From Bacteroidales bacterium (GTDB taxonomy: Bacteria; Bacteroidota; Bacteroidia; Bacteroidales; UBA932), in assembly GCA_018433265.1 (NCBI GenBank), contig JAHDRO010000336.1, positions 1 through 7,630 of the forward strand: a stretch of 7,630 nt of DNA, in the 5' to 3' direction. The notes below the pieces were generated by a model. The model was not told the DNA's origin. It did not search any database and saw only the letters and a program-made list of their open reading frames with translations. Made by a program: the position numbers and the translations under genes. Positions within the stretch are counted from its first letter, which is position 1, and every line of letters starts with the position of its first letter. Below, one piece after another: positions 1,005-4,817 of this stretch.

Positions 1005-1035
1005 TTTGTTCATTTTGGATAAATATTTACTTTTG
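1005..1035 (+). promoter_or_regulatory. Bacteroidetes-type promoter of the trp leader
   Basis: TTTG at 1005-1008 is followed by exactly 19 bp and then TACTTTTG at 1028-1035. This matches the Bacteroidetes primary-sigma consensus TTTG-N19/20-TAnnTTTG at every fixed position. With the usual geometry, transcription should start only a few bases after 1035, about 1038-1041, so the leader-peptide ATG at 1041 would have almost no 5' UTR. This is the best promoter match in the window and the strongest single clue to the host phylum. Confidence 0.72.
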
Positions 1036-1040
1036 CACAA

Positions 1041-1115
1041 ATGAAAGCGATTTTTACACAAAGTTGGTGGTGGCACGGCACTTTTAGGGCTGTGAGCTGC
1101 GCTTTTCGTGTATAA
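1041..1115 (+). CDS. trpL: trp operon-type leader peptide, 24 aa
   Basis: A 24-codon frame ends in TAA at 1113-1115. It begins MKAIFTQSWWWHG and has three consecutive Trp codons (TGG at 1065-1073), followed by a Thr-Phe-Arg-Ala-Val-Ser-Cys-Ala-Phe-Arg-Val tail. Runs of Trp codons in a short peptide just ahead of an intrinsic terminator and a tryptophan synthase gene are the hallmark of ribosome-mediated transcription attenuation. The peptide is a charged tRNA-Trp sensor and probably has no function as a protein. The region 1061-1110 is clearly more GC-rich than its flanks, as expected for structured leader RNA. There is no Shine-Dalgarno before the ATG, and the promoter position suggests translation from a nearly leaderless transcript. 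Known trp leaders often start MKAIF, which supports the identification. Confidence 0.85.
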   Translation: MKAIFTQSWWWHGTFRAVSCAFRV

Positions 1116-1180
1116 CCTGTTTTTATAATTTAATTGATGTATACAAGCCCAATGCTCACGCGTCGGGCTTTTTTATTTTA
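1065..1180 (+). promoter_or_regulatory. Tryptophan attenuator (alternative leader RNA structures)
   Basis: Competing pairings can be drawn by eye. Terminator: AAGCCC at 1145-1150 with GGGCTT at 1165-1170, followed by a T-tract. Antiterminator candidates: GGGCT at 1087-1091 with AGCCC at 1146-1150, extendable past one bulged A, and GTGAGC at 1092-1097 with GCTCAC at 1154-1159 (plus a G-U pair). Both use the terminator's 5' arm or loop and would exclude it. A proximal hairpin, CACG at 1074-1077 with CGTG at 1107-1110, could sequester the antiterminator strand. Expected logic: a ribosome stalled on the Trp codons (1065-1073) blocks the proximal hairpin, frees 1087-1097 for antitermination, and transcription enters trpB2. 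With ample charged tRNA-Trp the terminator forms. The regulatory direction is inferred from the well-known trp mechanism. Confidence 0.75.
1145..1179 (+). terminator. Intrinsic terminator of the trp attenuator
   Basis: A 6-bp GC-containing stem (AAGCCC at 1145-1150, GGGCTT at 1165-1170) encloses a 14-nt loop. It is followed directly by a T-rich run, TTTT at 1171-1174, then A and TTTT at 1176-1179. It lies 30 nt past the leader stop codon and 31 nt before the trpB2 ATG, the position expected for a regulated terminator. It is the only convincing intrinsic terminator in the window. Confidence 0.8.
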
Positions 1181-1209
1181 GTTTTTAACACATTTTAAAC
1201 TTATTATCG

Positions 1210-2496
1210 ATGGAAGCAAAAAAAATTATCATGCTACCGGAAAACGAAATGCCTCGACAATGGTATAACATTGTTCCTGACATGTTGGTACAACCTAAAC
1301 CGATGTTGAATCCTAAAACAAGAGAGCCTCTTCTTCCTGAGGAGATGGAAGGCCTTTTTGCAAAGGCTCTGGTTGAACAGGAGTTTTCACAGAAACGATG
1401 GCATGATATCCCTGATGAGGTCTTAGAGCTGTATAAAAGTTATAGACCTACGCCTCTTGTCAGGGCGAATTTACTTGAAAAAGCTTTGGATACCCCTGCG
1501 AAAATTTATTTCAAGAACGAAAGTGTTAGTCCGGTAGGGTCTCATAAACTAAATTCAGCATTGCCGCAGGCATATTACAATTATATTCAGGGAATTAAAG
1601 CTATTACAACAGAGACAGGAGCTGGTCAGTGGGGATCTGCAATGAGTCTTGCCTGCAGACATTTTGGCCTTAAGCTTGAGGTATTTATGGTAAAAAATAG
1701 TTATAATGCAAAGCCTTATCGAAAGGTAGTAATGAAAACTTATGGTGCTGATATTTACGCCTCACCATCAAATATTACACAATATGGACTGCAAATTTTA
1801 GCTGATGATCCCAACAATGACGGAACTCTGGGAATTGCCATATCTGAGGCTGTTGAAAGGGCAGTTACCAGACCAAATACCAGATATACTCTTGGTAGCG
1901 TTTTGAGTCATGTGATTATGCATCAAACCATTATTGGTCTTGAAGCTGAGAAACAGATGGAAATGGCAGGAGACTATCCTGACAAAGTCATTGGATGTTT
2001 TGGAGGTGGGTCAAATTTCTCAGGGATTTCGTTTCCGTTTTTAAGACATAAATTGACAGAAGGGCGTAGCATTAAATTAATTGCAGCAGAGCCTGCAGCT
2101 TGCCCAAAACTCACTACAGGTAAGCTGGAGTATGATTTTGGGGACACAGCTGGATTAACTCCCTTGATCCCAATGTATACTCTCGGGCATGATTTTCAAC
2201 CGGAGCAGATTCATGCAGCTGGTCTTCGTTATCATGGTGGTGGCAGAATAGTGAGTCAACTTAAACAGGATGGCTTTGTTGAGAGTTGTGCCATAGATCA
2301 AAAGGAGGCTTTTACTGCAGGAATATTATTTGCTCGAACAGAGGGAATTATTCCTGCTCCGGAGTCAACTCATGCAATTGCGGCAACCATCAGAGAAGCC
2401 TTGAAATGCAGGGAGAGTGGAAAGAGAGAAGTAATTTTGTTCAACTTGTCAGGACACGGTTTTCTTGATTTAGGAGCCTATGAGCAGTATGTTTAA
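1210..2496 (+). CDS. trpB: Tryptophan synthase beta chain, TrpB2 type
   Basis: This 428-residue, PLP-dependent fold-type II enzyme condenses indole with L-serine to give L-tryptophan. Visible motifs: YRPTPLVRA near 78-86 (substrate domain entry), GSHKLNSA with K113 as the Schiff-base lysine, TETGAGQWG with E135 in the position of the catalytic glutamate, GGGSN at 265-269 for the PLP phosphate, PAPESTHA at 382-389, and LSGHGFLDLGAY near the C terminus. TrpB2 rather than TrpB1 is indicated by the extra N-terminal region (PRQWYNIVPD), the length of about 430 against about 400, and Trp in GAGQWG where TrpB1 has His. TrpB2 enzymes usually lack the tight TrpA interaction and often act in indole salvage or with a distant TrpA. 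No trpA is adjacent. The gene follows the trp attenuator, so tryptophan-responsive control is well supported. No Shine-Dalgarno is evident before the ATG. Confidence 0.95.
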   Translation: MEAKKIIMLPENEMPRQWYNIVPDMLVQPKPMLNPKTREPLLPEEMEGLFAKALVEQEFSQKRWHDIPDEVLELYKSYRPTPLVRANLLEKALDTPAKIYFKNESVSPVGSHKLNSALPQAYYNYIQGIKAITTETGAGQWGSAMSLACRHFGLKLEVFMVKNSYNAKPYRKVVMKTYGADIYASPSNITQYGLQILADDPNNDGTLGIAISEAVERAVTRPNTRYTLGSVLSHVIMHQTIIGLEAEKQMEMAGDYPDKVIGCFGGGSNFSGISFPFLRHKLTEGRSIKLIAAEPAACPKLTTGKLEYDFGDTAGLTPLIPMYTLGHDFQPEQIHAAGLRYHGGGRIVSQLKQDGFVESCAIDQKEAFTAGILFARTEGIIPAPESTHAIAATIREALKCRESGKREVILFNLSGHGFLDLGAYEQYV

Positions 2497-2525: not shown

Positions 2526-2533
2526 TAGCTTTG
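2526..2533 (+). promoter_or_regulatory. Candidate -7 promoter element for the GT51 gene
   Basis: TAGCTTTG matches TAnnTTTG and lies 24 bp before the ATG at 2558, within the 61-bp gap after trpB. No good TTTG is found 19-20 bp upstream. If used, it would give the downstream gene its own transcript with a 5' UTR of about 20 nt that includes the GAGGG ribosome-binding site. It could equally be chance, with the gene cotranscribed from the trp promoter. Confidence 0.4.
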
Positions 2534-4527: not shown

Positions 4528-4817
4528 CTGAAATGGGAGGAGAGCTATTCTTTTGACAAATGCAATACCTTCAGGATTGATTTTTATTCCAAGAACAATG
4601 AACTGATGCGTACGGCTGATTGTGTAACTTATTTTCAGAGTAAGGGAAAAGATTTTGCCACTTTTATTGATTATCATGGCAAGGGGAATAACATGATAAC
4701 TGTTTTTGATCTTAAAAATGAAATCGCTGTTCAAGTTATCGGGACAATACACTCTCTGCCGATGGTTTTGTTATTGAGATGACTACTGAAGATTCCAAGG
4801 GGGAAAGACTGTCATGA
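4528..4817 (+). pseudogene. Decayed gene remnant, no start codon and one frameshift
   Basis: Two adjoining frames read as one continuous soluble-protein sequence. From 4528 the frame gives LKWEESYSFDKCNTF, then SKNNELMRTADCVTYF, KGKDFATFIDYHGKGNN, MITVFDLKNEIAVQVIG up to about 4743. That frame then turns to nonsense and stops at 4780, but the -1 frame continues sensibly from GAC at 4743 as DNTLSADGFVIEMTTEDSKG and stops at TGA 4815-4817. A single-base loss at the G run at 4741-4743 would explain this. At the 5' end an in-frame TGA at 4525-4527 cuts the reading frame off from the ATG at 4513, so a signal peptide and N terminus are missing. The family is not recognised with certainty; the style recalls small periplasmic DUF4412-like proteins of Bacteroidota. 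A sequencing error could account for the frameshift but not for the missing N terminus. Confidence 0.6.

What the first reader, a model, noticed from the sequence alone, without database searches (positions are those of the whole stretch)
1041..1209. Triple-Trp leader peptide and attenuator controlling an orphan TrpB2 gene
The sequence shows a 24-codon peptide with three adjacent TGG codons, mutually exclusive RNA pairings and an intrinsic terminator just ahead of a lone TrpB2 gene. Trp attenuators are best known in front of full trp operons in Proteobacteria. Here one appears to govern only trpB2, with no trpA or other trp genes beside it, suggesting TrpB2 is a tryptophan-starvation response gene (for example indole salvage) and not a general PLP enzyme.
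Basis: partly seen in the sequence, partly recalled or inferred. Interest (0 to 1): 0.72.

Follow-up and report, generated by a model that had tools for sequence, protein, structure and literature searches.

The report
Tryptophan attenuator on lone trpB2 gene
A short switch in front of a lone tryptophan-synthase gene appears to turn the gene on only when the cell runs out of tryptophan, and the nearest known relatives seem to have lost the rest of the tryptophan pathway, so the gene probably lets them make tryptophan from indole.

Summary
A 24-codon ORF with UGG-UGG-UGG, a protector hairpin (P1), an alternative antiterminator pairing and an intrinsic terminator with a U-tract lie directly before a lone trpB2. 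It is conserved: 32 of 79 examinable relatives carry a Trp-codon leader plus terminator upstream of trpB2, and the antiterminator changes letters on both sides between clades. Rfam's Trp_leader spans the element below its cut-off (27.9 bits, E 6.5e-4). A covariance model built only from trpB2 leaders also finds attenuators before trp operons: of 68 classified hits in an order-wide sample, 60 precede trp genes. The 16 genomes with the closest leaders lack trpA and trpC, TrpB1 and any full-length TrpE match, the complete genome of Bacteroidales bacterium CF among them. The mechanism is known; I saw no report of this target in the searches I could run. Trp-dependent read-through and indole use are untested, and the window's own genome is not held.

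The parts
1005..1035 (+). Bacteroidota-type promoter: TTTG (1005-1008), 19 nt, TACTTTTG (1028-1035, TAnnTTTG -7 box)
   Evidence: consensus as stated in PMC7366714 (passage). TAnnTTTG lies within 110 nt upstream of the Trp codons in 25 of 32 leaders (window and 31 loci), against 7.4% of shuffled regions. The box ends 5 nt before the leader ATG, so the leader ORF is probably (near-)leaderless; inferred.
1041..1115 (+). leader peptide ORF, 24 codons, MKAIFTQSWWWHGTFRAVSCAFRV
   Evidence: Of 32 leaders examined (window and 31 loci, without L001) all have an in-frame ATG upstream of the Trp codons, 31 of them with one 8-10 codons away, L026 with one at 11.
1065..1073 (+). three tandem UGG (Trp) codons, the predicted stall site
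   Evidence: Of the 32 loci with a leader (window not counted), 25 have three or more adjacent Trp codons and 7 have WW or WxW.
1074..1094 (+). protector hairpin P1 (1:2), CACGGC 1074-1079 / GCUGUG 1089-1094
   Evidence: 3 of 8 P1 pairs show changes on both sides in the 16-sequence alignment A1.
1092..1159 (+). antiterminator (2:3), GUGAGC 1092-1097 / GCUCAC 1154-1159, extended in the predicted fold by further pairs between
   Evidence: overlaps both P1 and the terminator; the helix differs in sequence between clades.
1145..1174 (+). intrinsic terminator (3:4): arms 1145-1155 and 1160-1170, loop UCAC, U-run 1169-1174
1210..2496 (+). trpB2 (TrpB-like PLP enzyme, 428 aa)
   Evidence: NF009057 682 bits (cut-off 366) and TIGR01415 612.3 bits (cut-off 518.85); best solved relatives by sequence 6hul, 4qys, 6hte.
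2526..2533 (+). TAGCTTTG, a -7-like box before the next gene, suggesting that trpB2 is transcribed alone
   Evidence: pattern match only (the same pattern occurs at seven places on the + strand of the window); in L001 and L002 the relative of the next window gene lies about 4 kb downstream of trpB2 and not next to it.

Best explanation
It is a classical ribosome-mediated tryptophan attenuator that controls a stand-alone TrpB2. Shown by sequence: leader ORF, Trp codons, three helices that exclude each other, terminator, conservation, and absence of the rest of the pathway in the nearest relatives. Inferred: with enough Trp-tRNA the ribosome runs through UGG-UGG-UGG to the stop; segment 2 is covered by the ribosome or held in P1, the terminator forms and transcription stops near 1174. 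When Trp-tRNA is short the ribosome stalls on the UGG codons and its front covers the 5' strand of P1, so GUGAGC is free to pair with GCUCAC; the terminator cannot form and trpB2 is transcribed. TrpB2 then joins indole, taken up from neighbours or released by tryptophanase, with serine (or phosphoserine) to make Trp. The organism is probably a Trp auxotroph whose kin run full trp operons by the same kind of attenuator.
For: Anatomy. Conservation and covariation. Independent model: RF00513 Trp_leader has the highest bit score of the 13 Rfam matches, full length, E 6.5e-4. Same element before trp operons: of 68 classified hits 31 precede trpE, 21 trpB1, 7 trpB2, 1 trpD, and 8 no trp gene. Pathway loss: 27 of the 32 leader-bearing genomes lack trpA and trpC; 0 of those 27 has TrpB1 over cut-off. 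Complete genome G002 has TrpB2 and a TnaA (881.3 bits, cut-off 750) and no match for trpA, trpC or TrpE and no TrpB1 over cut-off. Stepwise cases: Dysgonomonas PF1-14 has trpB2 inside a leader-led trp operon, Dysgonomonas sp. 520 has leader-trpB2 and no trpA or trpC. A Bacteroides TrpB2 gave an E. coli trpA mutant a growth benefit only beside wild-type E. coli, which the authors ascribe to secreted indole (PMC11535334, passage).
Against: No transcript or growth data. The window's own genome is not held, so its auxotrophy is inferred from relatives whose TrpB2 is 89% identical. 18 pathway-less genomes have trpB2 without such a leader, and 5 genomes with the pathway have it (the association is not corrected for kinship). 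Most genomes are MAGs by their titles and the tool gives no completeness. In the window alone the antiterminator and P1 do not beat shuffles. RF00513 is below its gathering score, and RF01687, which covers only the hairpin, has a lower E-value (2.8e-4). In about eight of the 32 leaders the contiguous antiterminator test is poor or inconsistent.
Confidence: 0.88

Rival explanations
1. The attenuator is real but TrpB2 is not for indole salvage: it is a general PLP enzyme (for example a serine or phosphoserine deaminase or a beta-replacement enzyme) that happens to sit behind a Trp-responsive leader.
For: The NCBIfam name is only TrpB-like PLP-dependent enzyme; TrpB2 also occurs without the leader and beside a complete pathway (66 of 104 TrpB2-bearing genomes in the order sample have trpA).
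Against: A starvation switch for Trp on an enzyme unrelated to Trp is unlikely; TrpB2 sits inside the trp operon in Dysgonomonas PF1-14; it is the only TrpB found in 27 of 27 leader-bearing pathway-less genomes; a Bacteroides TrpB2 gave a growth benefit that its authors ascribe to use of secreted indole (PMC11535334, passage).
Confidence: 0.1
2. The hairpin is an ordinary terminator of an upstream or antisense transcript and the WWW ORF is coincidental.
For: Terminators are common between genes; three trpB2 loci (L070, L073, L074) show a hairpin with a T-run upstream of trpB2 but no Trp leader (read by eye).
Against: A -7 box lies directly before the ORF; the Trp codons, their 16-19 nt distance to GTGAGC in the closest group, and the matching terminator loop are conserved together; 60 of 68 model hits precede trp genes, all 60 with a short ORF holding clustered Trp codons, while the 8 others have none.
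Confidence: 0.03
3. The leader works by another route: uncharged-tRNA sensing (T-box), a Trp-binding RNA or protein (TRAP), or control of translation only.
For: Such Trp controls exist in Firmicutes (established knowledge).
Against: No T-box or Trp riboswitch family is among the matches; the element has tandem UGG codons in frame and a terminator whose U-run ends 35 nt before the trpB2 start.
Confidence: 0.03

Closest known systems
E. coli trp operon leader (trpL; Rfam RF00513 Trp_leader)
   Same: Leader peptide with tandem Trp codons, 1:2, 2:3 and 3:4 pairings, terminator with U-tract; RF00513 aligns over its full length (27.9 bits, E 6.5e-4). The layout of trpL itself is established knowledge.
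   Different: Below the family's gathering score (41); controls one trpB2 gene and not trpEDCBA; Bacteroidota-type promoter box ending 5 nt before the start codon.
Actinobacterial trp attenuators (PMC1262725, passages seen)
   Same: Double or triple UGG leader, GC-rich terminator; in C. diphtheriae candidate attenuators before trpB1EDGC and before trpB2A (the paper's own gene names).
   Different: There trpA follows trpB2 and the pathway genes are present; here trpB2 stands alone.
Chlamydia trachomatis trpRBA (PMC7755916, PMC9378776, passages seen)
   Same: Tryptophan-starvation control of a tryptophan synthase used for indole salvage.
   Different: Control is by TrpR and by YtgR, whose level depends on a WWW motif in the YtgCR precursor; its proposed cis trpL has non-consecutive Trp codons and is not validated according to PMC7755916. 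Here the control is a cis leader with WWW and the enzyme is TrpB2 without TrpA.
trp-operon attenuators of the same order and class (found here)
   Same: Found by the model built from trpB2 leaders; leader ORF with clustered Trp codons.
   Different: They precede trpE, trpB1 or trpD.
Flavobacterium psychrophilum amino-acid operon leaders (PMC9723704, passage seen)
   Same: Clues for leader-peptide attenuation in the same phylum.
   Different: The words trp and tryptophan do not occur in that paper's main text.

Membership tests
ribosome-mediated trp attenuator | short ORF with tandem Trp codons near the 5' end of the transcript | tested here: met
   the 5' end itself is predicted from a promoter box, not mapped.
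ribosome-mediated trp attenuator | protector, antiterminator and terminator helices that exclude each other | tested here: met
   by conservation and covariation across relatives, not significant in the window alone for P1 and antiterminator.
ribosome-mediated trp attenuator | intrinsic terminator with U-tract before the structural gene | tested here: met
   1145-1174, gene start 1210.
ribosome-mediated trp attenuator | controls a gene of Trp synthesis | tested here: met
   trpB2 by NF009057 and TIGR01415; related leaders before trpE, trpB1 and trpD. Control itself was not measured.
ribosome-mediated trp attenuator | read-through rises under Trp starvation and depends on leader translation | not testable with these tools
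   Needs RNA work.
Rfam RF00513 Trp_leader | score at or above the gathering threshold (41 bits) | tested here: not met
   No match at gathering; 27.9 bits, E 6.5e-4 at the permissive setting.
TrpB2 (TIGR01415, trpB_rel) | score over the curated cut-off | tested here: met
   612.3 bits, cut-off 518.85.
TrpB2 (TIGR01415, trpB_rel) | forms Trp from indole | not testable with these tools
   Literature on relatives only (PMC11535334, passage).
stand-alone indole salvage in a Trp auxotroph | rest of the trp pathway absent from the genome | tested here: inconclusive
   Absent in relatives incl. complete G002; the window's genome is not held.

The most novel reading that the evidence does not exclude
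The regulator outlived its pathway. As lineages of this order lost the trp operon, the trp attenuator was kept on, or reattached to, the one remaining enzyme (trpB2, sometimes trpB1), turning biosynthetic control into an indole-capture switch. In genomes that also carry tryptophanase it decides whether the Trp/indole step runs towards indole or back to Trp, so that a Trp auxotroph lives on community indole only when starved.
Probability: 0.5. Interest if true: 0.68.

Novelty: new member of a known kind. Interest (0 to 1): 0.55.

Why it matters
What stand-alone TrpB2 does in bacteria that cannot make Trp is a matter of inference; a Trp-starvation switch in front of it gives a direct, testable reading: indole salvage. 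The element also yields a covariance model that finds trp attenuators through the order and class of the nearest relative, a group in which Rfam's Trp_leader did not reach its threshold for this member, and it offers a case of regulation that appears to be retained after pathway loss, relevant to cross-feeding of indole in gut and anaerobic communities.

Tried and rejected
Rfam at gathering gave nothing. The sigma-70 and terminator pattern scan found neither promoter nor terminator here: Bacteroidota promoters differ, and mismatches in the stem probably break its rule. The MAFFT alignment A1 misplaces the terminator's 3' arm in a few rows, and the model-fitted alignment A2 (32 matches, among them two on the minus strand and two trp-operon leaders) misplaces the antiterminator in diverged rows, so the antiterminator was compared sequence by sequence; no pair count was run for it. 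Weak model hits without a Trp leader were treated as false: 8 of 68, 5 of 27 had no trp gene downstream, of which 4 lack a leader and L238 has a WWW leader but its contig ends. One hit (G171:C46) was not fetched, and weak secondary hits were followed only in part. Loci dropped before the count of 32: L032, L048, L072 and L078 list short ORFs with scattered W codons; on checking, L032 and L072 have no terminator nearby, L048 and L078 have a hairpin candidate but no Trp cluster. L060 has a one-Trp ORF with a terminator like that of L061 and its genome has the pathway, L077 a terminator without a Trp ORF; neither was counted. In one search the hairpin printed for L040 is not its terminator; one search finds the right one. 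The idea that trpB2 is co-transcribed with the next gene was set aside: that gene has its own -7-like box and is not next to trpB2 in L001 and L002. Vitreschak 2004 on attenuators, recalled, is not held; I saw only its citation in PMC1262725.

Full report
OBSERVATION. The window holds an ORF at 1041-1115, MKAIFTQSWWWHGTFRAVSCAFRV, with TGG at 1065, 1068 and 1071. A hairpin at 1145-1170 with a UCAC loop and a T-run follows, and trpB2 starts at 1210. For the 172-nt leader 2 of 200 shuffles fold at least as well, for the hairpin 0 of 200. CACGGC just after the Trp codons pairs with GCTGTG (P1); the overlapping GTGAGC can instead pair with GCTCAC in the terminator's 5' arm and loop. With the 5' strand of P1 left out, as a stalled ribosome would hide it, 1090-1160 folds into an extended antiterminator of -16.3 kcal/mol (6 of 200 shuffles as good) against -13.6 for the terminator piece; but a longer piece, 1075-1165, is not unusual (56 of 200), nor is P1 with its flanks, 1065-1105 (21 of 200). 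By helix score the window's antiterminator and P1 are within the range of shuffles (20 and 29 of 200; 43 of 300 by duplex energy).

THE GENE. The downstream protein is TrpB2: NF009057 682 bits and TIGR01415 612.3 bits, both over cut-off; TrpB (TIGR00263) 155.3 bits, far below its cut-off of 392.45. Its closest solved relatives by sequence are 6hul, 4qys and 6hte, named tryptophan synthase beta chains. No other trp gene was recognised in the window.

CONSERVATION. One genome scan with TrpB2 kept the best 80 of 580 relatives; the titles name members of Bacteroidota, mostly Bacteroidales, and in one case only an uncultured bacterium. L034 has no upstream sequence; L001 starts 29 nt before trpB2, but an overlapping contig of its genome carries the leader and a terminator. 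Of the 79 examinable, 32 have a Trp-codon leader followed by a terminator: 16 of the WWW type closest to the window (alignment A1 holds 15 of them, without L001, plus the window) and 16 others, nine of these with three or four adjacent Trp codons and seven with WW or WxW. Searches use a different set of 32: the window and 31 loci, without L001. Random 500-nt stretches of the same loci hold a WWW ORF in 65 of 19,905 cases (a few may be true leaders).

COVARIATION. In A1 (16 sequences), P1 plus terminator have 86.2% of cells paired, 20 cells with changes on both sides (shuffled mean 6.7, 0 of 500 as high) and a covariation score of 0.274 (shuffled 0.182, 0 of 500); sliding the partner by 1-3 columns drops the pairing to 23.5-50.9%. 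The terminator is misaligned in a few rows. Within the 16 the antiterminator core is nearly invariant and says little by itself, but other clades use different letters on both sides: CTTGTGGG/CCCACAAG in L005, TCGTGAACAATG/CGTTGTTTACGA in L054, L058 and L069, TAGTAAACAATG/TGTTGTTTATTA in L061, GGGTACC/GGTATCC in L040. Against: in L024, L025, L030, L035, L036 and L044 the contiguous test finds no significant helix (45 to 192 of 200 shuffles as high), and in L015 and L019 it picks a different place. Combined over 32 sequences the shuffle ranks are very low for antiterminator and P1, but the sequences are related, so that number is not a probability.

INDEPENDENT MODEL. At a permissive setting 13 Rfam matches appear on 980-1230; the highest bit score is RF00513 Trp_leader, positions 1-100 of 100, 27.9 bits, E 6.5e-4, below its gathering score of 41. 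RF01687, an unrelated short family over the hairpin, has 26.3 bits and E 2.8e-4. At gathering nothing matches the window.

PROMOTER. TTTG, 19 nt and TACTTTTG (1005-1035) match the Bacteroides consensus given in PMC7366714 (passage). The TAnnTTTG box lies within 110 nt upstream of the Trp codons in 25 of 32 leaders, against 7.4% of shuffled regions. In the window it ends 5 nt before the ATG, so the leader probably starts at or next to the RNA's 5' end; inferred.

THE SAME ELEMENT BEFORE OPERONS. Model R1 was built from trpB2 leaders only. In the 79 genomes it also hits upstream of trpB1 in genomes with the pathway, for example L118, L119, L121, L124, L126 and L127. In 295 genomes of the order of G002 (taken to be Bacteroidales from its title), 66 have a hit at E <= 0.01, 71 hits in all. 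Of these, 68 were fetched and classified by the best trp reference downstream: trpE 31, trpB1 21, trpB2 7, trpD 1, none 8; all 60 with a trp gene have a short ORF with clustered Trp codons and none of the 8 has one. Two more, G002 and G014, are trpB2 leaders already in hand; one was not fetched. In a sample of the class 29 of 295 genomes have a hit at E <= 0.001; of 27 newly classified hits trpE 19, trpD 2, trpB1 1, none 5, one of the five (L238) having a WWW leader at a contig end.

PATHWAY LOSS. 79 of the 80 loci lie in genomes that could be searched (L065 does not). trpA is over cut-off in 14 of 49 and 20 of 30, trpC in 33 of 79. Leaving out L034: leader and neither trpA nor trpC 27, leader with pathway 5, no leader and no pathway 18, no leader with pathway 28 (from, whose own table counts L034 as no leader; Fisher p 6e-5 there, not corrected for kinship). 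All 16 genomes with the closest leader type lack trpA over cut-off (G003 and G014 have stray matches of 19-21 bits) and any trpC match. TrpE was looked for in 32 genomes, among them all 27 leader-bearing pathway-less ones: no match reaches the curated cut-off of 517.7, full-length matches of 411-432 bits occur only in G005 and G015, which have the pathway, and ten others, nine of them among the 27, have partial matches of 44-126 bits, which I take for PabB- or MenF-like relatives without having scanned them. TrpB1 is over cut-off in 0 of the 27. The complete genome G002 (Bacteroidales bacterium CF) has TrpB2, the leader, a TnaA (881.3 bits, cut-off 750), no match for trpA, trpC or TrpE, and no TrpB1 over cut-off. 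Order sample: 104 of 295 genomes have TrpB2 over cut-off and 107 have trpA; a model hit on trpB2 occurs in 9 of the 104, 7 of them without trpA, against 31 of the other 95 without trpA (Fisher p 0.011; the fast filters lose weak leaders, and kinship is not corrected).

A SNAPSHOT OF THE CHANGE. Dysgonomonas PF1-14 has one WWW leader before trpB1-trpE-trpG, a 141-codon ORF, trpB2 and trpD, then after three other ORFs trpC-trpF-trpA; Dysgonomonas sp. 520, its neighbour in the TrpB2 tree, has a leader directly before trpB2 and no trpA or trpC (trpF was placed by position and first residues, not scanned). Parabacteroides PFB2-10 has the leader before a trpB1 (567.6 bits, cut-off 392.45) and lacks trpA and trpC. 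In the tree the 16 closest leader types need at least 4 gains or losses, so the label has changed more than once. Whether the attenuator was kept in place or acquired anew is not settled.

LITERATURE. Ten searches of one open-access library. A Bacteroides TrpB2 gave an E. coli trpA mutant a growth benefit only beside wild-type E. coli, ascribed by the authors to indole (PMC11535334, passage). PMC2965389 (passages) says in 2010 that, to its authors' knowledge, leader-peptide systems had been shown only in Proteobacteria and Actinobacteria; PMC9723704 (passage) reports clues in a Flavobacterium. The gut-genome survey PMC9026213 (passages) lists 14 genomes with TrpAB alone as needing Trp or indole precursors. 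In the listings of searches, and in the passages of papers opened from them, I saw no report of an attenuator on a lone trpB2; subscription papers are largely missing from that library.

VERDICT. A classical trp attenuator by anatomy, covariation and genomic company, on a salvage-type target, in a lineage that has probably lost the pathway. Mechanism known, deployment apparently new; function untested.

Noticed in passing
L142 (G040, Parabacteroides sp. PFB2-10), 664-1848: A WWW leader before a trpB1 in a genome without trpA or trpC, the same pattern with the other beta subunit. In the order sample 9 of 21 genomes with a leader on trpB1 have no trpA over cut-off; operon content there was not checked.
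   Followed up: partly
L135 and L138 (Dysgonomonas): trpB2 lies inside the trp operon, between trpG and trpD, so one leader seems to govern both beta subunits (genes of L135 named, apart from trpF, those of L138 only by resemblance of position and first residues).
   Followed up: partly
G002:C1:2550134-2551489 (L137 1126-2544): A tryptophanase coexists with TrpB2 behind an attenuator in a pathway-less genome. In the 79-genome search 10 of the 16 closest leader genomes have a TIGR02617 match above 500 bits, all below that model's cut-off of 825.8; only the one of G002 was scanned and named TnaA by another model.
   Followed up: partly
L215 and L240 (G620), L218 (G409): WWW leaders directly before trpD in G620 and G409, and G620 has a second leader before trpE: apparently split operons with one attenuator each.
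   Followed up: no
L070, L073, L074 upstream of trpB2: These trpB2 genes, two of them from Barnesiella by title, have a shared hairpin with a GTGAGC motif and a T-run upstream but no Trp leader (read by eye).
   Followed up: no
window about 4528-4780: An 84-codon stretch open on the + strand without a usual start codon between the transglycosylase-like gene and the MFS gene: looks like a decayed gene.
   Followed up: no
window 1028-1041 and L002, L004, L008, L011, L012, L014, L035: The -7 box ends 4-6 nt before a leader ATG, suggesting (near-)leaderless leader peptides; PMC7366714 found only about 3.7% of B. thetaiotaomicron 5' UTRs shorter than 10 nt.
   Followed up: partly
L060 upstream of trpB2: A one-Trp short ORF followed by a terminator like that of L061, in a genome with trpA and trpC: perhaps a decaying attenuator.
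   Followed up: no
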